From a virus: DNA of 64,000 bases. The position numbers and the translations under genes are program-made. The notes below the pieces were generated by a model that was given only the letters and a program-made list of their open reading frames with translations, did not search any database and was not told where the DNA came from. This document shows, one piece after another, positions 3,816 to 26,592 of this stretch; within the stretch, counting starts at the first letter, position 1; each line of letters begins with the position of its first letter. The stretch covers positions 62,001 through 126,000 of IMG/VR virus record IMGVR_UViG_3300035703_000021; one strand, given 5' to 3'.

Positions 3816-4507
3816 CGCTTACGCTTCTTCTTCTTGCTGCTCTTAGGAGCAGATCTGGCGGGAGCAAAACCACCACCCCCGGATCTCTCGGCTATCTCAT
3901 CACCCACACCGGTGAACTTCAGGTTGGCGACTTCGGAGCTCAGATCGACATCATCGAACATCACATTGAATATCTCCAACGCCGCGTCAGCCAGCATATT
4001 CTCCAAGCCCTGAGTTGTCTTTGCCCCAGTCAACCAGGGCTTTCTCCTATCCACGCCCGCCGCGTAGCCCATGGTATTAAGCACCTCGTAGACTCCCTGG
4101 CTCCTACGGTTTACAAGGTGGGCGCCGTAGAGCCTTCCGGTGATGATCCGTACGCCCTCCTCCCTGTACCTTCTCTTGAGGAATTGAATAACCGCGCCGT
4201 CGGGGTTCTGGGCCTCCAGATACCCCTCGAGTTCCTTGATGGCATTCTCAGCGCGCATGACGAGCGCCTCGCCAGGGCGACCTTTGTACTCCACTTCGAC
4301 GTTGGCCTCGCCCAGAGCCCTGATGTACTGCGAGAAGTTATACTCTACCTCCTCGGTGTATTTTTCCGCAACGTGGGCGAGCATGGCTTTCCTCACGCCT
4401 TCCATTTGAGCCTGGAGGATCTGGGATTTGGCGGTCTCCATGATCTGCTTCTTCGAGCTGGAGAGCACCGAGCCCATGATGGCTGAGGCTAGGGCTCGGT
4501 AGATCAT
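3812..4507 (-). CDS. Hypothetical protein with basic C-terminal tail
   Basis: A 231-residue protein that I do not recognise. The N-terminal 120 residues look helical (for example QIMETAKSQILQAQMEGVRKAML). The C-terminus becomes Gly, Ser and Lys rich and ends in SSKKKKRKR, a strongly basic tail suited to nucleic acid or acidic partners. Its start overlaps the stop of the hub gene by four bases, so it is translated after the hub and is probably a virion or tail-assembly protein. Its stop overlaps that of the converging DCL-like gene by four bases. Confidence 0.7.
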   Translation of the reverse strand: MIYRALASAIMGSVLSSSKKQIMETAKSQILQAQMEGVRKAMLAHVAEKYTEEVEYNFSQYIRALGEANVEVEYKGRPGEALVMRAENAIKELEGYLEAQNPDGAVIQFLKRRYREEGVRIITGRLYGAHLVNRRSQGVYEVLNTMGYAAGVDRRKPWLTGAKTTQGLENMLADAALEIFNVMFDDVDLSSEVANLKFTGVGDEIAERSGGGGFAPARSAPKSSKKKKRKR

Positions 4508-7500
4508 GATGGTTTATCGCATTTTATCTGCTTTACGATCTGCTCGGCAAATTGCTGACGTTTTGCTATACCTCCGCTGGCCACCTCGTACTGCCTCCTC
4601 CAGATCTCTGCGGCGGCGGACGCTGACGTAGCGCTGTTCATAGCCTGTACCGTACCTCCGCCTCTTTGCTTGATGTCCTGTACCATAAACTCGAGCTGGC
4701 ACTGCAGGGTGCTGGTCTGCCCACACTTCTGAATTGCCCGTATTTTTCTGGACCCTCCCCACTGCGCGAGTCCGTAGCATTTTTCAGGGACACCTGAGTC
4801 GGTTTTGCAGGTTACGCCTTGGATGGAGGTGTTGTGAACGTTGGGGTTGAAGTTACTCTCCTCTTGTAGATTGCCAAGTGCTCCGGCAAAAGCGTTAGGA
4901 GTGTTCAATCCGGCAGAGTATAGGGCGTTGATAATAGAGTCCTTTGTCCCGTCCCCTGTTTTGCAGTTTGCCTGGGGAAAGGACGTGGAGGTATCGCTTG
5001 GAGACGTGGAGTCACTGCCCTGGCTGAGGAAGGTGCTGAGCGCTTGGGCCTCGGGGCAACGTTCCTCGGTTGAGTCCTTGCCACTCTCGGTTATCCAGTT
5101 CAGTTCGCCTATCGACCGGATGTAGTCGTAGTAGTTGGACGAGATCTTGGCGTCTCCGCTTTTCCGCATGCTCTTCAGGTAATTTTGGAAGGTAGGTACT
5201 GTGGTTTTTATTGTTCCCCAGGCTGTGACTCCCTCGATCTGAACCCTCAGATCCCCCTCACGCCACCTGTACTCGCACTCACTCACGAACCAGTTCTTGA
5301 AGCGATTAGCGATCCAGACGCCCGGATCTCTGCTGGCCGGTCTGCCCTCTTCCACCCACGCGTCGTAGTCGGTGATGAAGGACAGGATAGTGCGGCCCGG
5401 GATGATACGCAGGGCTCTGGGCACTCCTTTGAAGCTCGTCTCGACCATAAGGCCGGAGGTTGTTGGTGAGCCCTGTATGGTCGGGTTATTCTTACCCCCT
5501 CCGGAGGAGGTAGAGAGACCTGCGATGTTTGGCGGAATAGACTTATCCTGTAGGTGCGCGAGGATCATCTCCTTGCCATCGGGACGTTTTATGATTACGG
5601 CGTTCCCGTATCCTCTCCAGTTTTCTTTGGTTTCCACGATCGTCGCCCCTCCAGTAACAGAGACTGGCTGACCGTTTATGTTCTCGCCGCCGGGTCCGGG
5701 TCCGGAGAAGTCTATACCGTAATGCATTCCCCCAGTTCTAGGACCGTAGGGTGAGTAAACGCCCCAAGCGCTGGCCGGTTTGCCCGCGATAAGAACATAC
5801 GGATCAACATCGGCTGCGGTAATAGGTTGCCCCCGGCCTCCGGGTTGAGTAAATGGGCCAAGCTCGGCGTGAAGGTGGGGACCACTGGACTCCCCGGTAG
5901 ATCCTACTCTACCAACATTGATCGAAGACGCCGCGGACGCAGACGCGGAAGAAGCAGCACCAGCAGCAGTAGTTCCAGTCCGAGCCTTTTCGGCGGCGAT
6001 GGCCCGCATTACCGGATCGCCTAATTGAGCATACAACTTCTCTCTCGTGGCTGGGTCAGAGGACCTAGACGCCGTTAACGTGGCGCTGTCCATCCTACCC
6101 AACTCTACGATCGTAACTCCCCTATCACCGGCACCAAGACACCCGGAGTGGTTCTTACCAAATGCTCCATATGAGGAGGCCAGAGTGTCATCTAGAACTC
6201 CGATGTTATTAGCGTACCTACCGCACGGAGGTATGACACCGGAGCTTCCACTCGCTTGGTCCATGTGCAGATCGATGGCTTTACCACCCGCATCAACAAC
6301 TTTTTTACCCTGAGTCCAAAGTGCGTTGGGATTATTAACGTCTGAGATATTTGTTGTTGAAGATGGTATGTTAAACTCTACGTACCCCTGAAGACCGTAC
6401 TTGGATACATTTCTCTGCATCCAAAGCGCTACCTCCCTCACCAGAGCCTTCTCCCCAGCGGCACCGGTCTGACCTGTGGTGATGTCTCCGTGGCCGGGGG
6501 TAATCAGTACCTTATTAGGTTTCTGGGTGTTATTAGCGCTCCAGTCCTTAAGATTCGCTTTCGGGGCTGCGGGTACCACCGCACCGACCGGAGATGTCGT
6601 AGGAGCGTTACTGGTAACAGAGGGAGAAGGAGCGGGTGGTATCTCGGTCTCGGGGAACGCCCAGTCCCATACGATCTTAGGGTTCAAGGTCGTTACCTGG
6701 CCGCTGTGCCCAACAATATAGAACCGGACAAACTCTTTCTTCTCGGAGGTGGATGTACCGATCTCCTGATTGATCTCGACTTTGTCCTTAGCCTTCACCT
6801 TCACCGTGGTGAGACCTGTGGACTCCTGGAGGATGGGTCTGTAGAAGCACTTCTTACTCCCCTCCTTCTCGCAGATATGCAGGGAGAAGTTGGTCTTGAT
6901 GAGAATGCGACCGTCGGCCTGGCTTGCCTCCTGTACATCACCGCTCAGAAACGAGATGGAAGTGGTGCCGTTGGGAGCAACACCGAACAGATTCAGGCCA
7001 TCCTTACTTATCTTTGTGGCCTCCTCGTTGATGACTTGGATGCCCTTGGTGTTGGCGGACGCGGACTGCTGGTCACGCCACACGTACCCGGTGGCCGTAG
7101 GCGCCCCTTTAACGTTCTTTGGTACCTTCTCGAAGAGCCCTGGAAAGTTGACCTTCTTGACCTTCTCCATCGCCTTCTTTCTCTTTTGGGGTGCTACGTC
7201 GCCGATGAAGTAGGTACTAGCCTTGAAGGCCTCGGAGACGTACGGGTCTTTATTATTTATCCTGGAGGCCATCCCGGCGTTGAGGGCCAGGGCCGTAAGC
7301 TCCGGCTGACCGGAGATCTCGTAGCCTTCGTAGAGTCCCTTGCCGAGGTAGAACACTGAGCACCCTTGGTCCACTTCGCCACGGGTGCACATCGAGATCT
7401 TGTTAGCGTACTCGCGGATGGGCAGGGAGAGCGAATTGCCGTTGACGGAGTCAAGGACTTTTTTGATAGCTTCGCCGGTAGTTATACCCGTGTAACGCAC

Positions 7501-8208
7501 AGTGCGCGGGAGTATTCTCTTTCTCTCCGGCTCCGAGTTGGAGTTAGCGCAGAACGATACGGAGTAACCCAGGCTCTCGGCGAGCTTCTTGAGCGCCTGC
7601 TCGATCTCAACGCCCTCGTCGAGGGTCATATTCACGAGGGACTGGTTGAATATCACCGACCGAGCTTCCACTCCGCGAATGGTGACGCTTGGGTACTTGG
7701 TCCCGTGGGAGACCGAGAATCCGCTCACGCGAAAGTAGAAGTCGGTGCCAAAAGACGTTCCCTTCACATCGTACCACAACGACACGAGGAGGAACGGGAA
7801 GTTCTTGATCCCAAGCCCGGAGGAGTCCTCGCCTTCGACCGCCGTGTCTACGTACTTGAAGCACTTATCAACGTACGGGTCCTGGCCTTCCTCGCATGGT
7901 GGCAGAAGAATGTTATTTGCCGCGGCTACGTTGGCCTGAGTGTACAGCTGTGCGGCGTCAAACAAAGCCGGCCAAGCCAGCCCGGTTAGGTACGGATCGG
8001 AGATGGTTACCGAGCATGTCGACTGCGAGAGGGCGTTAGTGGCCGCGGTGGCGGGTGTAGAAGCGTTCGCGTTGGCAAAGGCTAGATTGGGTTGCCACTT
8101 CAGTTTTACGCTCAGCTCCTGAACCTGTCTCTCATCGAAGACGATAAGCTGCTCCGACCCGTACGGTCTATAACCTACGCGTGCTCGGCAGCGATACAGA
8201 CTCGACAC
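4504..8208 (-). CDS. Baseplate hub with amidase, permuted M23 peptidase and tail lysozyme domains
   Basis: A 1234-residue tail-tip protein. Residues 1-350 resemble a gpD-type hub barrel. An amidase_3-like domain at about 565-745 has PGHGD (His573), Glu586, DLHMD (His648) and VELGR (Glu702), matching the Zn ligands and catalytic Glu. An M23 peptidase at about 764-895 is in permuted order: GPHLHAEL (His778, His780) comes before GGMHYGIDF (His829, Asp833), GYGNAVI and LAHL. Residues 915-1050 may form a second hub-like beta domain. Residues 1083-1230 match phage tail lysozyme: GNLQEESNFNP (probable catalytic Glu1117) and YGLAQWGGSR. Pro- and Ala/Ser-rich linkers separate the modules. The protein presumably cleaves peptidoglycan stem, cross-link and glycan bonds during injection. 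It also has a Cys motif at 101-119 shared with the 14171-15844 protein. Confidence 0.9.
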   Translation of the reverse strand: MSSLYRCRARVGYRPYGSEQLIVFDERQVQELSVKLKWQPNLAFANANASTPATAATNALSQSTCSVTISDPYLTGLAWPALFDAAQLYTQANVAAANNILLPPCEEGQDPYVDKCFKYVDTAVEGEDSSGLGIKNFPFLLVSLWYDVKGTSFGTDFYFRVSGFSVSHGTKYPSVTIRGVEARSVIFNQSLVNMTLDEGVEIEQALKKLAESLGYSVSFCANSNSEPERKRILPRTVRYTGITTGEAIKKVLDSVNGNSLSLPIREYANKISMCTRGEVDQGCSVFYLGKGLYEGYEISGQPELTALALNAGMASRINNKDPYVSEAFKASTYFIGDVAPQKRKKAMEKVKKVNFPGLFEKVPKNVKGAPTATGYVWRDQQSASANTKGIQVINEEATKISKDGLNLFGVAPNGTTSISFLSGDVQEASQADGRILIKTNFSLHICEKEGSKKCFYRPILQESTGLTTVKVKAKDKVEINQEIGTSTSEKKEFVRFYIVGHSGQVTTLNPKIVWDWAFPETEIPPAPSPSVTSNAPTTSPVGAVVPAAPKANLKDWSANNTQKPNKVLITPGHGDITTGQTGAAGEKALVREVALWMQRNVSKYGLQGYVEFNIPSSTTNISDVNNPNALWTQGKKVVDAGGKAIDLHMDQASGSSGVIPPCGRYANNIGVLDDTLASSYGAFGKNHSGCLGAGDRGVTIVELGRMDSATLTASRSSDPATREKLYAQLGDPVMRAIAAEKARTGTTAAGAASSASASAASSINVGRVGSTGESSGPHLHAELGPFTQPGGRGQPITAADVDPYVLIAGKPASAWGVYSPYGPRTGGMHYGIDFSGPGPGGENINGQPVSVTGGATIVETKENWRGYGNAVIIKRPDGKEMILAHLQDKSIPPNIAGLSTSSGGGKNNPTIQGSPTTSGLMVETSFKGVPRALRIIPGRTILSFITDYDAWVEEGRPASRDPGVWIANRFKNWFVSECEYRWREGDLRVQIEGVTAWGTIKTTVPTFQNYLKSMRKSGDAKISSNYYDYIRSIGELNWITESGKDSTEERCPEAQALSTFLSQGSDSTSPSDTSTSFPQANCKTGDGTKDSIINALYSAGLNTPNAFAGALGNLQEESNFNPNVHNTSIQGVTCKTDSGVPEKCYGLAQWGGSRKIRAIQKCGQTSTLQCQLEFMVQDIKQRGGGTVQAMNSATSASAAAEIWRRQYEVASGGIAKRQQFAEQIVKQIKCDKPS

Positions 8209-9003: not shown

Positions 9004-9011
9004 CTTTAAAC
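9004..9011 (-). promoter_or_regulatory. Candidate late promoter octamer (GTTTAAAG)
   Basis: On the minus strand GTTTAAAG, followed by ATATATCG, lies 51 nt before the ATG of the 8221-8952 gene. The octamer contains the last codon and stop (GTT TAA) of the kinase gene. It would drive the 8952, 8208 and 4507 structural genes. Confidence 0.6.
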
Positions 9012-9593
9012 AGGGATAAGGCGATCGAGCAGGTTAAAGTCCCGGTCGGTGTCGCGAAGGACGGTGTGAGGGAGAAGGGAGTAGTGGTTGAGGTAGTTGT
9101 GCATGTAGTCGTAGTAAGCGTAGTGCTCGGCTTCCCGCGCTTTCATCTTATTCTTGATCCACCAGGCCGTGGCGTCCGGGTACTCCTCGCGTACCTCGAT
9201 GAGGTGGTGAGGCTGGCTCCACTCCCACTCCCGCTCGAGAAGGAACACTTTTACGTCCGAACTACGCTCCAGGAAGTAAGACTCAGCGGCCTGGGCCCAC
9301 TCATGGGAGATGGTGATCCGCCTCCGAAACTCGTCGTAGAAGCAGACTTCAGAGAACCCCCGATCACACAGGATGAACTCCGGCATCGTCTCCAGAACGG
9401 AGTCGAAGGGCCCGATGTACTGCTCAATGGGGTTGGAGTGGTGGGGTTGGGGGCCGGAGAAGTGCAGAGCGGTGGCGTCAAGGTCCCTGCGCCGGAACCG
9501 CTCGAGGGTATTCTCGATGATGGTGGATTTGCCAACTCTGTCGGCTCCGAGCAGAACGACTGTGACGGGCTTGGGCATTGGAAGTGAGATCAT
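9006..9593 (-). CDS. P-loop nucleotide kinase (thymidylate kinase-like)
   Basis: A 195-residue protein of the P-loop NMP-kinase type. The Walker A motif GADRVGKST is at residues 16-24. LCDRGFSEVCFYDEF, with Asp77 and Arg78, matches the DR-x-x-S/Y nucleoside-monophosphate-binding motif of thymidylate and deoxynucleoside kinases. A lid-like Arg-rich stretch follows at 110-145. It probably phosphorylates deoxynucleotides for phage DNA synthesis; polynucleotide kinase activity is an alternative. Two starts are possible, Met1 at 9593 or Met6 at 9578. Neither has a Shine-Dalgarno sequence, and the promoter -10 at 9603 leaves almost no leader for the first. Confidence 0.8.
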   Translation of the reverse strand: MISLPMPKPVTVVLLGADRVGKSTIIENTLERFRRRDLDATALHFSGPQPHHSNPIEQYIGPFDSVLETMPEFILCDRGFSEVCFYDEFRRRITISHEWAQAAESYFLERSSDVKVFLLEREWEWSQPHHLIEVREEYPDATAWWIKNKMKAREAEHYAYYDYMHNYLNHYSLLPHTVLRDTDRDFNLLDRLIPV

Positions 9594-19482: not shown

Positions 19483-22400
19483 TTACTGCTCACTGTAATT
19501 CAGCGACATGTAAATCTCGTTATTTGTCTCGTCGTGATTGCCCAGGGCCCTCGCGATGAAGAAGGTCGCTAGGTTGCCATCATCCTCGTTGACAATGCTT
19601 TCGGCCGAAACATTGAACACGGTGTTCAGATCTATCTCAGTTGGGGTGTTGGCGGAGACGTAGTAAGTGGCAAGAGGAGTACCCTGGTTGCTTGTTAGCC
19701 ATCTGATGGGGTAGTCGGAAGCTGTGAAGATACCCGCCGAGTTTACGCCTCCAGGTGACAGGAAGCTTCCGCACTTCTTAGGAGATGTGTGGATGGACTT
19801 GTAGGTGTCCAGATTGGCCTCGCTCGCGTTCACCGTGGGCGCTGTGGATTTACCCAGGCTGTCGATGTGAGTGTAGGAGCTGATCACTTTCACCGGGCCG
19901 CCGGCCTGAGGGTTCGATGACCATTCACTGTGGAAATCGGTTTGGTCATCGGAGATGGAGACGGTGCTTCTGTGCGGGCTGAATGGCTCGACTTTGACAC
20001 CATTGGGGGTCTTCTGCCCGATCCATACCCCACCCAGAGATGCCCCCTGTCTGCCCTGGATAAATACGCGGATGAACGGTACGTTCCCCGGAGCGATCTT
20101 GGATACGAGAATCTGACGGACTTCAGACTTCTTGTTCATGGTGGCGATGTAGACGATGTTGTAAGATACGTCCACAGTGCCTGTAAAGATTCCGCCTGGC
20201 AACGAGGTGCCAATGGGCAGAAGGTACTGAGTCACTTCTCCAACGGTCCTGACGATACCGCCACTCGTTACGCTATTGACCGAAACCCCACTCTGGACTA
20301 TAGTAACAGTGAACGTATCAGTTCCCAGGTTAGGCCACGGGCCCGATGGGTCACTGACATAGTACTGGATGGTTCCCGGCGCTTCCGGGTCTTCCTCGGA
20401 GATAATCGTAACGTTCTCCCGGAGTTCTCTTCCAGCTTTACAGTACAGTCCTCTGCACAGTCCTCCCTCTGTCCCTGGGACGCTCAATCGACTATCGAAG
20501 TAGTCGATATCGGTAAAGTAATAGTTCTGGTACTCTCCTACTTCCAAGTTGTAGGTGTCCGTAGCGACAGTGGGACTCGTCTCCATGTACAGAGTATTGT
20601 TCGCGTAGGTGGCGGAGGTGAAATCGTACGGTAGGCCCTCGTAGAAAGTTTGGCCGTCGTAGGATGCGTTAGCTTGGATTCCCCAGTTAGGACCGGAGTT
20701 ATCCTCGTGCAGAGGATCCCCAGGAGTCGTGCTTGGCCACACGAACCCTACTCTAAAAGAGGAGGCGTGGGACCCATCACCTAGCCCGGAGAGCTCGCCT
20801 CCGACCCAGTACACGTAGAATTCGCTGCTTAGAACGTCGATAGTACTCAGAAGGATCTGATCACGTCTGAAGTAGTCGAACTCGATGTCGTAACCCGTCT
20901 CATACGGAGAGACGGGGGCGTACGTGAACGGTAGGTAGACCTTATCCGCTGTTGGGAGCGGTTTTCTGCTTGACAGGTACTCACTGCTCTGACCATCTCT
21001 CTGCAGTTTGAGAGCGACCGTATTGGGAACACTGAAATCCTTCTGGGAGGCGGGGAACAGGCCGTAGAGGTCATCCCCGATGATCCTGATCGCTTGGTTG
21101 CCTATAACCGACCAGTTGGATTGGATGGTAGGGTTTCTGAAGTCTCCTGATGAAGCTTGGCTGTAGGCCGCGACTGCGGTGTGAGTCGAAGCGTTATCCT
21201 CGGAGATACCCAGGGCCGGGAAGTTCAGCTCGTAGTACGGGCTGATCGCGAACTTACCTTTGAGCCTTCTTTGCTCTGGCAACGGATTCCAGACGTACCC
21301 TTCCTGGTGCGAGTAGGCCCACTCGGGACATCCTTTCTGCCTGACGATCTTAACCTCGCAATCACGCTGGCTGTGCACAAAAAGGTTCTGAGGAAATATC
21401 TCCTTCTTGTTGTAGAGTTCCGTTCCGAACCTATTCACTAGGAGCTGGCGAGGCTTAACGCCCATCACCGTCGTCCAGTCGATTGCATTGAGTCGAGTTT
21501 TGGACTGGGAGAACCCGGGGTTGGGAAGGTTTCTGACCTTGGACTGGGCGTTGAGGCTGTACAGAGTACCCTCGTCGTATCCATCAATATAGTATGATGC
21601 TCCGAACTTATTAACGTACTGATCAACTCTAATGGCGGAGGAGTCCTGGACTTTGAGTCTGTACTTGAAATAAAAGAACGGATCTGCTAAGCAGGGCTGA
21701 CCGAGTTGGTTCTCGATGACGAGAGTGTGCATCGTCACCCATCTACACTCGTTATTCTCCACCGGAACGTACGCGTAGAACCTGGCCCCAATGGCTCCGT
21801 ACCATCCGAACTCGATCTTGTACATGGTTACGGTGTCCGGATTGAGCAGGTAACCTGTCTCGCCCTCGCCGCTGAGGGAGTCCCCGTTCATTATCTTCTG
21901 CTCGATAACGGTCTCGTACTGAACTTTGCCGTTTCTAACTATCGTTTTTGTATTCTCTGCGTACTCAGCCTCGCTGAGAAACTGCGTATCCTCCAGGGGA
22001 ACGGTGGATCTTCTCACGATGGAGAAGAGGGCGCCATTGGCGAGCCTGAACATGTAGGAGTCGGTATCGTTTTCCACTCCGAACTCCAGGATGGTTCCGG
22101 GTCCAGCTCCGATCTCGCTTACTTTAACACCGTAGGTGAAACCGCTGATCCGACCCGGCTGGTAACGGAAAGCCCTGATGGACTTCAGAGTTATCTCGGA
22201 GTACACTCCTTGGACTCCGCCAATTCTATTACCGTTTGTGGGAAGGTCGATCTGCTCCCCAAACGCTTGGGACGGCCACGCGTTTGTAAAGGTGTTGTTA
22301 TTTCGATCAGCCACAGTGGGTGTGTCTAGCACAAAATAGGGAAGCTTCAGGTCTCTCTCGAGCTGGGTTACAGTGGACTGGTTCTTGTGAATCGTGAACT

Positions 22401-23517
22401 CCCAGTCCTTAAGGTCCTGACGGATCTCACTCCACCGGAGTCCGTGATACTTTTCCCAGAGTTCCGCGATGGGATTTGTTTTGATTCGGAAGTGCCCGCG
22501 ATCCTCCGCACGGCCCTCAGGGTAGTATACGCGAGTGGTGCCGAAGAAGAAGCTATCCCATGTTGCGCTGAGATTACCCGGAAGGTTGATATTAGCTTCT
22601 GTGATAAATACGTTTGAGGTCCCCCACAGAGAGGCTACGGATCTCCAGTTCTCTATTTCCGCGATGTTGAAGTTGTACGCGCGGCCGCTGGGAATGATGG
22701 GGTAGTTGGTTGCGGAGCCGAAACGCAACTGCTGGATATCCAGCCAAAGCTTATCCCAGTACAGCTCATTGAAGGAGAAAGTTCCGTCTCCGTTGTCGAT
22801 AGGAGGATACTTGCCGAGAGTCGGCAGAAGGTTGAACTCTCCCCACTGATTAGGCGTGAACTCATTAACCATGTACCTGAATAGGTACAGCGCGACCACG
22901 CTGTTGATATACTGCCCCCAGGTGGTGTATCTTTCCGCTCCGCCAGGATTCACAAGTTGGTCCTGGATCGAAGGTCTTGGGGGCTCTAGGAACGGTGTAG
23001 GATTCGCGGATAAAACAATGGCGGAATTTTTACTATCCTCGTTGTACGCTACGGGGTAGTAATTACCGGTGGAACTCGGCCTTCTCGTCCACCACCATCT
23101 GAATACGTCGTCAGGGTATCCCGCGGAATCGACTCTCCAGTCCTTTGGATCTAAGCCATAGGACGATACGTTTCCAAACAATCCCTGCTGAGACGTCTCC
23201 CGGTTAACCCCGAGAAGAGACCTGGAGACTTCGCTCTGCTCCGCAAACTGCTCCACCATTGGCAAAGCCGCCGGATCCCCTTTGCTGAAAGCATTGGCCA
23301 CGCTCCGGCCGTCATTCTTGTAGGAGTCGGAGTCGAGCACGACGCTAGGCGCCCTGCTCTGACCATACTCGCTCCGTCTGTAGGCGTCCTTCTCGGTGAC
23401 AAGAGGGGCCCCCTGCTCGGTTGTCAGAGGGAAGCCTCTGATGTCGACCATCTGCTTTACGCTTCGCGTTTTACGCGGTGGCGTTTTATCCGCTCTTAGA
23501 CTCTTTTTTCTTGCCAT
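19483..23517 (-). CDS. Very large virion protein, paralogue of the next gene
   Basis: A 1344-residue beta-rich protein with a basic start (MARKKSLRADKTPPRKTR). It shares several blocks with the upstream-transcribed 1023-residue protein: FRYQPGRISGFTYGVKV, MYKIEFGWYGAIGARFYAYV, RWVTMH...ENQLGQ and KFGASYYIDGYDEGT. These are clear paralogous cores, surrounded by unrelated extensions. Proteins with these blocks are common large virion proteins of marine myoviruses in my memory, with unknown function. A GGGAGGAG ribosome site precedes the ATG, three bases from the previous stop. Two copies may decorate the same tail organelle. Confidence 0.75.
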   Translation of the reverse strand: MARKKSLRADKTPPRKTRSVKQMVDIRGFPLTTEQGAPLVTEKDAYRRSEYGQSRAPSVVLDSDSYKNDGRSVANAFSKGDPAALPMVEQFAEQSEVSRSLLGVNRETSQQGLFGNVSSYGLDPKDWRVDSAGYPDDVFRWWWTRRPSSTGNYYPVAYNEDSKNSAIVLSANPTPFLEPPRPSIQDQLVNPGGAERYTTWGQYINSVVALYLFRYMVNEFTPNQWGEFNLLPTLGKYPPIDNGDGTFSFNELYWDKLWLDIQQLRFGSATNYPIIPSGRAYNFNIAEIENWRSVASLWGTSNVFITEANINLPGNLSATWDSFFFGTTRVYYPEGRAEDRGHFRIKTNPIAELWEKYHGLRWSEIRQDLKDWEFTIHKNQSTVTQLERDLKLPYFVLDTPTVADRNNNTFTNAWPSQAFGEQIDLPTNGNRIGGVQGVYSEITLKSIRAFRYQPGRISGFTYGVKVSEIGAGPGTILEFGVENDTDSYMFRLANGALFSIVRRSTVPLEDTQFLSEAEYAENTKTIVRNGKVQYETVIEQKIMNGDSLSGEGETGYLLNPDTVTMYKIEFGWYGAIGARFYAYVPVENNECRWVTMHTLVIENQLGQPCLADPFFYFKYRLKVQDSSAIRVDQYVNKFGASYYIDGYDEGTLYSLNAQSKVRNLPNPGFSQSKTRLNAIDWTTVMGVKPRQLLVNRFGTELYNKKEIFPQNLFVHSQRDCEVKIVRQKGCPEWAYSHQEGYVWNPLPEQRRLKGKFAISPYYELNFPALGISEDNASTHTAVAAYSQASSGDFRNPTIQSNWSVIGNQAIRIIGDDLYGLFPASQKDFSVPNTVALKLQRDGQSSEYLSSRKPLPTADKVYLPFTYAPVSPYETGYDIEFDYFRRDQILLSTIDVLSSEFYVYWVGGELSGLGDGSHASSFRVGFVWPSTTPGDPLHEDNSGPNWGIQANASYDGQTFYEGLPYDFTSATYANNTLYMETSPTVATDTYNLEVGEYQNYYFTDIDYFDSRLSVPGTEGGLCRGLYCKAGRELRENVTIISEEDPEAPGTIQYYVSDPSGPWPNLGTDTFTVTIVQSGVSVNSVTSGGIVRTVGEVTQYLLPIGTSLPGGIFTGTVDVSYNIVYIATMNKKSEVRQILVSKIAPGNVPFIRVFIQGRQGASLGGVWIGQKTPNGVKVEPFSPHRSTVSISDDQTDFHSEWSSNPQAGGPVKVISSYTHIDSLGKSTAPTVNASEANLDTYKSIHTSPKKCGSFLSPGGVNSAGIFTASDYPIRWLTSNQGTPLATYYVSANTPTEIDLNTVFNVSAESIVNEDDGNLATFFIARALGNHDETNNEIYMSLNYSEQ

Positions 23518-23520
23518 AAA

Positions 23521-26500
23521 TCACTGCTCCTCCCAGGTAAGGGAGTTTACAACTGAGAGTTGGGTTGAAGGTTCCGTACTTGACGAAGTTGACTCCCACA
23601 TCGCGTAAGCGCAGAGGATATCCACCTCATTAGTAAGAGGATAGGAGATATATTCCTTATTATACGCGAAGTAGTCAGCCAGATCAAATTGAGCGCCTCC
23701 CTCATTACAGTACAAGGAGAAGATCGTGTTTCCTGTCCCCGCTACTGGCGCCAGTTGGAAGTCCTGCGAAACGGAAGCTCCGGAGAGCTGGGCGATGGAC
23801 TCAAAAGTTCCAATGATGTCCGACTCGTTCCACTTCTTCTGATCCTCGTATTTAGAGTGCGTAAAATCTCCTGAGAACTGCGTGATACTTCCCTGAGTGT
23901 TAAAATTGTACATTTTTACAGGAAGAAGTCCGCCAAAAACAGTGAAAGGTTCGTTTTTTGCCTCGTAATTCTGGATCCAGTAATCGGACCCCTTGCGGAA
24001 AAGTCTGACAAGCACGGCGCTCTCAGACACTCCCGGCGAGGCTGGGAATCCGCCAGGGGGAATGGATCCCGTCGCGATGCCTCTCATATAGCAGTGAATG
24101 TACGCGCCATCGAAGGACAGAAGACTCTGTAGACTTGTAAAGTCGGGAGCAGAGATATTAGCTCCCGTGCCAGAGGCAAAGATCTTCCTAGGTACAGTTC
24201 CTGATCCCAGGTTAAATCCATTTGAGGTATTAGTGCTAGAACTATAAAGTGAGATGGGGTAACTCTGGTTTAGCGAGGAGTTATTTAAGTTGTTGGTAAT
24301 GAGTAGCGGATTTTTGATGAAGTTAATGGTAAGGATATTGCTATCGGATGATGGGTCAGTCACCCCGATCCCGTACTTAATCGGATAGAGCTGTATTCTG
24401 TTTCTGATGCCAACTCCTGCTCCGTTACTAACCTCGTCCTTAGCTCTTAGAGCAATCATAGCTCGCTGGCGACGTGGGACGATTAACTCTATGTCAGTAC
24501 CCACCCCAAAAGCGGTTACGGCTTTATTGAAGTACAGCCTGATTTTATCAGGAGAGTCATTCTCAACCCAGATAACTCTCATCGTTGTATCCGACTTCAG
24601 ATACGCCCCTACAAGTTGATCTTTTTGCGCTTGAGGAACAGCCTCTGAGGTATCAACGCTAAAGTAATTCGAGGTTGAAACTCCGGAGACTTCGGCTCTG
24701 ATTCCACTATACGCAACGCTCTTGGAGTAATCGGAAGACTTGGAAAGTAGTTTCACGGTTCCCTTGTCCCCACCATCGATATAGTAGGAAGCGCCGTACT
24801 TGACAAGCTTGCTCTTTCCACTGTCTGGTAGGCCATTGCTCAGGCCCGCGTGAGTCATGTACGTGATGGGTAGAGTAGCGTTACCCAGTGAGGCCACATC
24901 AAGCTGGTTAGAAGCTCTCATATGGTGCACTCTCACCCACCTTGCTTCTCCGTTGCCTACAGGAACGTAGCAGAGGAACAGAGCACCGACCGCACCATAC
25001 CAGGAAAACTCGATCTTCCACATGGTTACCTTGGTGAAGTCGATATCGTACACGGAGGTATCCGTTAAGATGTTGCCAGCAACATCAATAACAACGGGAT
25101 CACCCGGGCGCTTGATGCCGGTATCCGCGGGGTCCACGTTAGCCGTAGAGACGTCGCTCCAGCGGACGGTGTTGGTGAGGCCATTGAGTTGGTCGTTGCT
25201 GAACATTGCACGGACAGGCCTCCACTCGTACACCACTCTGTACTGAGGAGGAACACAAATCTTAAACCACTCTTTGAGGGTTAGATTTTTGCGTCCAACG
25301 TCGGAGTTGGCAACGTCGTAGGACGAGACTCTATGCGCGGAAGGGAAGGCCGTGGAGTATTCTCCGTTCTGCACTTGGGTGCTTCCCTGAACCGATACGA
25401 GTAGATTCCACACTTTAACAGCACTATCGGTGGCGTTAGGAGCGGTATCGTATCCGAATCTCGCGTTGGAGGTGTCTACGTTCAGGATGTTCAAACCCTC
25501 TTCTGTAGTAGTTGTTCCGATCTGGTCTGTAAATCCAACCCCACCTCCTCTGCTCAGATTGGTGACAATGTCCTCCCAGCGGCAGTGGGCGTCTAGACGA
25601 ATATAATTCGTATTAGGCTTCATATAGTCCTGTTTGCTGTAGCCTCTATACTCATCGCTATCTTTACTAATATCTTTTTGATCAAAGGGAAACTGAAACT
25701 TCCTACCGGAGAAGTGCTCCACAAATGCACCAGCGGCGTCGCGATAAGCTAGCCTCACAGCGTAGCCTTCGTTGTAATTGTAATCTGACAGCGTGTTGGG
25801 AGCCGCTTCGATGGCCCTAACGTCCGCCGGAGCGTAGCAAAGACTAGGATCGTGAATCGCCGCGGCTACGTAGCACAAGCCGTTTCGGTAGATGACCGGA
25901 TCGACTCCAACGACTCCCCAGTTACCCTCTTTGATATTGGTGCTGCCTGTCGAACCCGTGATAGCGTTCCAGCGCTCTGGAGTCGTCTCCACTCCGGTGG
26001 GCTGGGTGTAAGTCAGAGCCTGCGTGCGGCGAACGCACCTAAAGTCGTTACTATCTCCACCGTTTACCATCTCGAAGTAGTAGCCATCGTACTTGTCGAA
26101 AATGCCCCACTTCTTGATGGTAGGGGCGCCTTTCATAGTGTTACGAGCCGGGGTGGCGGCCTCGTAGGTGGACTTGGTGCGGTTCATCTTTACACCCATG
26201 GTCGAGGATGACACACGACCAGGTTGGTATCTGAAGAACCTCTTCGAGGTCAGCACGGCGGTTCTTCCTGTGGAGGCCACTACCTCCGCCCCAGCTTCCT
26301 CCGCGAGGTGGTTCACTCCGGTGCCAGTGTCCGGGTCGTTCTCCAGAGGAACCTGAGACCACTCGGATGGGTTGACGTCGTACGTGTTAACGTCAGCAAA
26401 AATGCCCAAAGCCACTTCGGCTCTAGGGATTCCGAGCAAGCTAAGAGCGACCTCGGACTGAATCTTGTTCTGCTCCTCCACGGGGATAGGAGGCTGGTCC

Positions 26501-26592
26501 TCAGCGAATACTACTGGGAGGGAGTTAACCGCCTTCTGCTGACCTAGGGGTACCGGGGCGGTTTTGCCGATGATAGTCTGTTTGTTAGCCAT
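23521..26592 (-). CDS. Large virion protein, paralogue of 19483-23517
   Basis: A 1023-residue beta-rich protein. Its shared core with the 1344-residue paralogue includes FRYQPGRVSSSTMGVKM, MWKIEFSWYGAVGALFLCYV, ARWVRVHHMRASNQL and KYGASYYIDGGDKGT. It has a short Pro-rich N-terminus (KTAPVPLGQQKAVNSLPVVF) that may be an attachment peptide. It is translated just after the beta-helix spike gene and before its paralogue, all in one unit, so these three probably belong to the same tail or fibre structure. The function of the family is unknown to me. Confidence 0.75.
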   Translation of the reverse strand: MANKQTIIGKTAPVPLGQQKAVNSLPVVFAEDQPPIPVEEQNKIQSEVALSLLGIPRAEVALGIFADVNTYDVNPSEWSQVPLENDPDTGTGVNHLAEEAGAEVVASTGRTAVLTSKRFFRYQPGRVSSSTMGVKMNRTKSTYEAATPARNTMKGAPTIKKWGIFDKYDGYYFEMVNGGDSNDFRCVRRTQALTYTQPTGVETTPERWNAITGSTGSTNIKEGNWGVVGVDPVIYRNGLCYVAAAIHDPSLCYAPADVRAIEAAPNTLSDYNYNEGYAVRLAYRDAAGAFVEHFSGRKFQFPFDQKDISKDSDEYRGYSKQDYMKPNTNYIRLDAHCRWEDIVTNLSRGGGVGFTDQIGTTTTEEGLNILNVDTSNARFGYDTAPNATDSAVKVWNLLVSVQGSTQVQNGEYSTAFPSAHRVSSYDVANSDVGRKNLTLKEWFKICVPPQYRVVYEWRPVRAMFSNDQLNGLTNTVRWSDVSTANVDPADTGIKRPGDPVVIDVAGNILTDTSVYDIDFTKVTMWKIEFSWYGAVGALFLCYVPVGNGEARWVRVHHMRASNQLDVASLGNATLPITYMTHAGLSNGLPDSGKSKLVKYGASYYIDGGDKGTVKLLSKSSDYSKSVAYSGIRAEVSGVSTSNYFSVDTSEAVPQAQKDQLVGAYLKSDTTMRVIWVENDSPDKIRLYFNKAVTAFGVGTDIELIVPRRQRAMIALRAKDEVSNGAGVGIRNRIQLYPIKYGIGVTDPSSDSNILTINFIKNPLLITNNLNNSSLNQSYPISLYSSSTNTSNGFNLGSGTVPRKIFASGTGANISAPDFTSLQSLLSFDGAYIHCYMRGIATGSIPPGGFPASPGVSESAVLVRLFRKGSDYWIQNYEAKNEPFTVFGGLLPVKMYNFNTQGSITQFSGDFTHSKYEDQKKWNESDIIGTFESIAQLSGASVSQDFQLAPVAGTGNTIFSLYCNEGGAQFDLADYFAYNKEYISYPLTNEVDILCAYAMWESTSSSTEPSTQLSVVNSLTWEEQ

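What the first reader, a model, noticed from the sequence alone, without database searches (positions are those of the whole stretch)
4504..8208. One hub protein carries three different cell-wall hydrolase domains, one circularly permuted
Seen: residues 565-745 have amidase_3 ligands (His573, Glu586, His648, Glu702). Residues 764-895 have M23 motifs in reversed block order: the HLH box and a following DPY end come first, then a linker, then YSPYGPRTGGMHYGIDF, GYGNAVI and LAHL. Residues 1083-1230 match a tail lysozyme (GNLQEESNFNP, YGLAQW). Known: ordinary M23 domains run H-x-x-x-D, then GYGN, then AHL, then GPHLH. Inference: a permuted M23 still closes the same fold, and the three domains would cut three different peptidoglycan bonds. 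The combination is new to me.
Basis: partly seen in the sequence, partly recalled or inferred. Interest (0 to 1): 0.78.

Follow-up and report, generated by a model that had tools for sequence, protein, structure and literature searches.

The report
Phage hub with permuted cell-wall peptidase
A tail-hub protein of an uncultured phage related to Synechococcus phages carries three cell-wall-cutting domains, one of which is a zinc peptidase whose two halves have swapped places in the chain; the same swapped peptidase turns up in DNA-entry proteins of several unrelated phages and appears not to have been described.

Summary
ORF 8208-4504 (minus strand, 1234 aa) is a baseplate hub with a gp27-like fold, split by a long insert. 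A tail lysozyme (1090-1226) follows the hub fold. Pfam, a profile search of the PDB and the conservation of all five catalytic residues (H778, H780, H829, D833, H885) show the permutation. AlphaFold2 folds 761-903 as one confident unit (pLDDT 90-98), and its best structural neighbours are all M23 enzymes. Every hub relative in which both halves could be read has the same permuted order; the amidase is optional. Permuted M23 domains also occur, collinear with this one, in tape measure proteins of Acinetobacter and Moraxella phages, in an internal virion protein of Synechococcus podophage P60 and in a small protein of S-EIVl. I found no description of a permuted M23 in the library searched. Most likely the three domains breach the wall during DNA entry. 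Metal geometry and enzyme activity are not shown. Novelty: new variant of a known kind.

The parts
4504..8208 (-). Baseplate hub protein, 1234 aa, with inserted and appended cell-wall hydrolase domains
   Evidence: orthologs in S-TIM5, S-TIM54, S-TIM61, S-TIM66 and IMG/VR contigs
7219..8208 (-). Hub fold, N-terminal part (residues 1-330), gp27-like
   Evidence: VIA-align: 8kea_A Z 14.2, 8eon_E Z 12.9, T4 gp27 1k28_D Z 11.4, spanning model about 4-999; Foldseek 8eon_E E=1.8e-4; model pLDDT only 54
6649..7200 (-). Degenerate, ordinary-order M23-like domain (residues about 337-520), without catalytic residues
   Evidence: VIA-align: Csd2 Z 10.7, SpoIIQ Z 9.9, LytM Z 9.5; 6 of 10 orthologs match PF01551 weakly, best E=3.6e-4; SpoIIQ E=0.004
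5974..6525 (-). Amidase_3-type domain (residues 562-745); ligands H573, E586, H648 and catalytic E702; optional module
   Evidence: VIA-align 4rn7 and 7agm Z 11.0, 7b3n Z 10.0, 4bin Z 9.7; PHROG_30576; residues conserved in amidase-bearing orthologs, domain absent from 8 of 14 aligned hubs
5500..5928 (-). Circularly permuted M23 metallopeptidase domain (residues 761-903)
5854..5919 (-). M23 C-half placed first: VGRVGSTGESSGPHLHAELG (residues 764-785; H778, H780)
   Evidence: PF01551 profile positions 69-87
5764..5853 (-). Connector from old C-terminus to old N-terminus (residues 786-815)
   Evidence: collinear in hubs and in Acinetobacter and Moraxella tape measure proteins
5539..5763 (-). M23 N-half placed second: YSPYGPRTGGMHYGIDF..GYGN..LAHL (residues 816-890; H829, D833, H885)
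   Evidence: PF01551 profile positions 2-56; structural match to LytM 185-274
5200..5454 (-). Hub fold, C-terminal part (residues about 919-1003), after the insert
   Evidence: aligned ranges; conserved block in all orthologs
4531..4941 (-). Phage tail lysozyme domain (residues 1090-1226)
   Evidence: PF18013 E=1.7e-21; phi29 gp13 lysozyme domain E=2e-12 with the hub-family profile

Best explanation
This is the central baseplate hub of a contractile-tailed phage of the S-TIM5 (Aurunvirus) lineage, whose isolated members infect Synechococcus. Into the gp27-like hub fold is inserted a string of wall-acting domains: a dead M23 domain, an amidase, and an M23 endopeptidase whose halves are circularly permuted (HxH half first, HxxxD and AHL half second, chain opened between the AHL strand and the VGxxGxTG strand, old ends joined by a connector of about 30 residues). 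A tail lysozyme is appended after the hub fold. The permuted M23 should close the ordinary LytM-type fold and bind one zinc through H829, D833 and H780, with H778 and H885 as catalytic histidines. When the tail contracts, the hub and its enzymes reach the periplasm and locally cut stem-peptide cross-links (M23), the MurNAc-L-Ala amide bond (amidase) and the glycan strand (lysozyme), so that the tube and DNA can pass. Shown: domain order, homology, the permuted order across the lineage, invariant catalytic residues, confident single-unit fold, hub fold. Inferred: zinc geometry, activity, bond specificity, role during entry.
For: Two PF01551 stretches in swapped order, over the cut-off. Profile of the permuted domain against the PDB: 4.6e-19 to ordinary M23 in two swapped blocks. 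AF2 of residues 741-935: 761-903 at pLDDT 90-98. The ten best VIA-align rows are all M23 enzymes (Z 5.2-6.5, rmsd mostly about 2.5, aligned over the N-half) and the next row is Z 4.0. H778, H780, H829, D833, H885 invariant in 14 aligned hubs. Permuted order also in S-TIM5, S-TIM54 and S-TIM66, whose records call the protein a virion structural protein, and in other records by Pfam profile. Hub fold Z 11-14. Amidase fold Z 9.7-11. Lysozyme 1.7e-21. Same gene neighbourhood as S-TIM5: TerL, SigF, hub, PhoH. It is the only M23 in its own record.
Against: No coordinates, so the zinc site was not measured. Foldseek alone gives only E=1.5 to lysostaphin for the permuted model, as expected for a sequential aligner but not independent support. 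The hub model has mean pLDDT 54. The amidase is under the Pfam cut-off. No activity data. In related permuted domains HLH is HLD, and in the P60 group the HxxxD motif is altered, so some relatives may be inactive or use another metal site.
Confidence: 0.77

Rival explanations
1. The two M23 half-motifs are remnants of two different broken M23 domains and do not form one active fold.
For: There is a second, degenerate M23 domain upstream at 337-520, so the protein has a history of more than one M23 copy.
Against: The upstream domain is complete by itself (fold match over 337-520). AF2 folds 761-903 as one confident unit. Both halves keep all catalytic residues and their order and near-constant spacing in every hub with both halves. 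In S-EIVl the same unit, with HLD, makes up most of a 248-aa protein with no other M23 match in its record.
Confidence: 0.05
2. The permuted M23 is a catalytically dead wall-binding or structural domain, like SpoIIQ, EnvC or Csd2.
For: M23 pseudo-enzymes are common, one lies next to it here, and relatives in other lineages vary at the third ligand (HLD) or at HxxxD.
Against: All five catalytic residues are invariant in 14 aligned hubs that are down to 32% identical overall, whereas the neighbouring dead M23 has lost them.
Confidence: 0.15
3. The permuted M23 closes by domain swapping between the three subunits of the hub trimer, not within one chain.
For: gp27-type hubs are trimers (established knowledge) and the halves are joined by a connector of about 30 residues.
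Against: The monomer model closes within the chain at high confidence, and the same unit occurs in unrelated proteins.
Confidence: 0.07
4. The protein acts from within at lysis rather than at entry.
For: Amidase, M23 and lysozyme domains also occur in endolysins.
Against: The hydrolases sit in a hub fold; S-TIM orthologs are recorded as virion structural proteins; tail lysozyme and PHROG tail hits.
Confidence: 0.03

Closest known systems
phi29 gp13 (morphogenesis protein 1; PDB 3csq)
   Same: Tail-tip protein with a tail-lysozyme domain and an M23-like domain; its lysozyme domain matches the hub-family profile, E=2e-12
   Different: No hub fold, no amidase, only two domains; the one HxH-like half detected lies late in the chain (261-290), so no sign of permutation
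Gp16, PDB 9m7n (915 aa)
   Same: Tail-lysozyme domain plus M23 in one protein
   Different: M23 in ordinary order: 796-860, then 872-897
T4 gp27-gp5 and other gp27-like hubs (E217, Mu gp44, VgrG; cyanophage A-1(L) 8kea)
   Same: Hub fold; T4 gp5 also brings a lysozyme to the spike (established knowledge)
   Different: Here the wall-acting domains are inserted into the hub fold itself, among them two M23-type domains
LytM / lysostaphin peptidase family M23 (PF01551)
   Same: Motifs HxxxD, GYGN, AHL, HxH; fold
   Different: Halves in swapped order; the VKxGDxVxxGQ hairpin between AHL and the VGxxGxTG strand is replaced by the new chain ends
Microcystis phage Ma-LMM01 gp94 and gp95
   Same: Homologous amidase in a baseplate protein (gp94, PHROG_30576), M23 encoded next door (gp95)
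   Different: M23 is a separate gene in ordinary order, E=5.5e-33 in one stretch
Circularly permuted NlpC/P60 (YaeF, LRAT families)
   Same: Circular permutation of a cell-wall peptidase fold (PMC6403190)
   Different: Cysteine peptidase, other fold, not M23

Membership tests
Peptidase M23 (PF01551) | Profile match above the curated cut-off | tested here: met
   40.3 bits against 28.7, two stretches in swapped order
Peptidase M23 (PF01551) | HxxxD, AHL and HxH catalytic residues present | tested here: met
   H829, D833, H885, H778, H780, invariant in 14 hubs
Peptidase M23 (PF01551) | Linear order HxxxD, then AHL, then HxH | tested here: not met
   Order is HxH, then HxxxD, then AHL in all hub relatives with both halves
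Peptidase M23 (PF01551) | M23 fold | tested here: met
   Confident model whose ten best VIA-align rows are all M23; the C-half cannot be aligned by a sequential method
Peptidase M23 (PF01551) | Zn-dependent endopeptidase activity | not testable with these tools
   needs an assay
Amidase_3 (PF01520) | Profile match above the curated cut-off | tested here: not met
   13.9 bits against 27
Amidase_3 (PF01520) | H-E-H zinc ligands and catalytic E | tested here: met
   H573, E586, H648, E702, kept in amidase-bearing orthologs
Amidase_3 (PF01520) | Fold | tested here: met
   Z 9.7-11.0 to AmiC, Ami1, AmiP and 4rn7 over 562-745; model confidence moderate
Phage tail lysozyme (PF18013) | Profile match above the curated cut-off | tested here: met
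   77.3 bits against 28.2
gp27-like baseplate hub | Hub fold | tested here: met
   Z 11-14 to several hubs, Foldseek E=1.8e-4 to E217; model pLDDT 54
gp27-like baseplate hub | Present in the virion at the tail axis as a trimer | not testable with these tools
   Orthologs annotated 'virion structural protein'; position not tested

The most novel reading that the evidence does not exclude
Circularly permuted M23 peptidases are a distinct clade specialised for phage DNA-entry machines, found in myophage hubs, siphophage tape measure proteins and podophage internal virion proteins; they arose once and have been exchanged between these lineages, and profile-based annotation misses or splits them.
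Probability: 0.55. Interest if true: 0.72.

Novelty: new variant of a known kind. Interest (0 to 1): 0.62.

Why it matters
A natural circular permutation of the M23 peptidase fold, conserved with its active-site residues in a phage lineage and recurring in unrelated entry proteins, would show that the two halves of this fold can be re-joined at a new point. It explains why such enzymes are missed or halved by standard profiles. It also gives ready-made, differently tethered M23 modules for enzyme work, and makes the question of how a contractile-tail phage opens a cyanobacterial wall directly testable.

Tried and rejected
Two broken domains: rejected by fold, conservation and the S-EIVl single-domain protein. 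Chance motif matches: rejected by the profile statistics. An M23 with ordinary order in this gene family: none among the hub relatives with both halves. PDB 9k2v_E (cyanophage A4 internal protein) and 9m7n as solved permuted M23: checked, both ordinary order. LAGLIDADG_2 weak hit at 965-1048 (E=0.04): taken as spurious. Using the connector to prove a single origin: shuffles are only suggestive (p 0.001-0.8; the profile version of that test failed to run), and ordinary M23 leaders resemble it in part. A tree of concatenated halves groups the permuted ones with only 0.79 support; iqtree did not run. Foldseek on the permuted model against the PDB gave no significant hit. An alignment of 18 permuted domains had no stretch conserved enough for the search for related loci. 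psbA was not found in the record, so the host is not shown by that marker. Literature: no paper in the searched library pairs M23, LytM or lysostaphin with circular permutation; subscription papers and preprints are mostly not covered.

Full report
What the sequence shows. The ORF is on the minus strand, 8208 to 4504, 1234 aa, GTG start. The gene sits between structural genes in the same order as in Synechococcus phage S-TIM5: terminase, sigma factor, two small genes, hub, virion protein, PhoH.

Permutation. Pfam M23 matches the protein above its cut-off but in two pieces: the profile's start (2-56) at residues 828-890 and its end (69-87) upstream at about 769-787 (the same in genome coordinates). 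Searching the PDB with a profile of 18 permuted domains gives 3slu at 4.6e-19. There the first part of the permuted domain aligns after the second part, with only about six residues of the ordinary enzyme between the two blocks. So the chain was opened between the AHL strand and the VGxxGxTG strand, and the old ends are joined by a connector of about 30 residues. Structure prediction from 18 related sequences folds residues 761-903 as one unit with pLDDT 90-98. The ten best VIA-align rows are LytM, StM23, lysostaphin, EnpA, DipM, a Neisseria M23 and LytU (Z 5.2-6.5), aligned over the N-half, which is what a sequential aligner can do; the next row is Z 4.0. I could not measure the metal site, because coordinates are not returned.

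Conservation. The hub family was collected from IMG/VR and isolated phages. In 14 aligned hubs, down to 32% identity, H778, H780, H829, D833 and H885 are invariant, and every hub with both halves has the permuted order. The amidase is a module present in only 6 of these 14. The lysozyme and M23 modules also come in different sequence types between close relatives (for example L005, 93% identical overall, with another lysozyme type), pointing to module exchange.

The rest of the protein. A model of residues 1-1060 has low confidence (pLDDT 54), yet its fold matches are well above background: gp27-like hubs (cyanophage A-1(L) Z 14.2, E217 Z 12.9, T4 gp27 Z 11.4) with alignments running from about residue 4 to 999, so the hub fold is split by an insert; M23 enzymes and pseudo-enzymes (Csd2 Z 10.7, SpoIIQ Z 9.9, LytM Z 9.5) over 337-520 in ordinary order; amidases (Z 9.7-11.0) over 562-745 (Foldseek). 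The upstream M23 has no catalytic motif and matches Pfam weakly in 6 of 10 orthologs. The tail lysozyme is unambiguous.

Other permuted M23 domains. The permuted domain aligns in one collinear stretch, across both halves, to tape measure proteins of Acinetobacter phages, and these to Moraxella phage tail proteins and to the 248-aa 'peptidase M23 family' protein of Synechococcus phage S-EIVl. A viral fold library gives four significant, nearly full-length hits: S-TIM5, an unnamed protein, an internal virion protein of podophage P60 and an uncultured tape measure protein; ordinary M23 proteins appear only at E above 1. P60 gp33 has a tail lysozyme domain followed by the permuted domain at its C-terminus. 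Relatives are numerous in viral contigs: 142 candidate stretches for the Acinetobacter type, 103 for the P60 type and 37 for the S-EIVl type, of which 36 span both halves. Outside the hub family the third ligand is usually Asp (HLD), and the P60 type has lost the canonical HxxxD spacing, so activity there is open. A tree of concatenated halves groups the permuted domains, weakly (0.79).

Mechanism. The hub position, virion annotation of orthologs and the three hydrolase types fit local opening of the peptidoglycan during DNA entry. That each domain cuts a different bond follows from family knowledge, not from data here. The host is presumed to be a cyanobacterium from the relatives; psbA was not found.

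Novelty. Circular permutation is documented for NlpC/P60 cell-wall peptidases (PMC6403190). No paper in the searched library reports it for M23. The hub is a known kind and each enzyme class is known; the permuted M23 and its insertion, beside a dead M23 and an amidase, into a hub fold are the new variant.

Noticed in passing
window 6649-7200 (hub residues 337-520): A degenerate ordinary-order M23 domain lies upstream of the active permuted one, recalling the inactive/active Csd2-Csd1 pair.
   Followed up: partly
L033:2958-7268; L036:1664-6052: Tape measure proteins of Acinetobacter and Moraxella phages contain a permuted M23-like domain with HLD in place of HLH.
   Followed up: partly
L137:22777-25779: Podophage P60 internal virion protein ends in tail lysozyme plus a permuted M23-like domain with an altered HxxxD motif.
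   Followed up: partly
L005:5001-8714: A contig 93% identical in the hub carries a different tail-lysozyme sequence type, suggesting recombination at that module.
   Followed up: no
L010:7152-7154: In-frame stop in an otherwise intact hub ortholog, between the DYD and WVE residues of a conserved motif; sequencing error or broken gene.
   Followed up: no
window 9006-9593: Small P-loop kinase-like ORF (AAA_28, weak) between hub-side structural genes and PhoH.
   Followed up: no
window 19483-26592: Two long structural proteins sharing PHROG_1645 in tandem.
   Followed up: no
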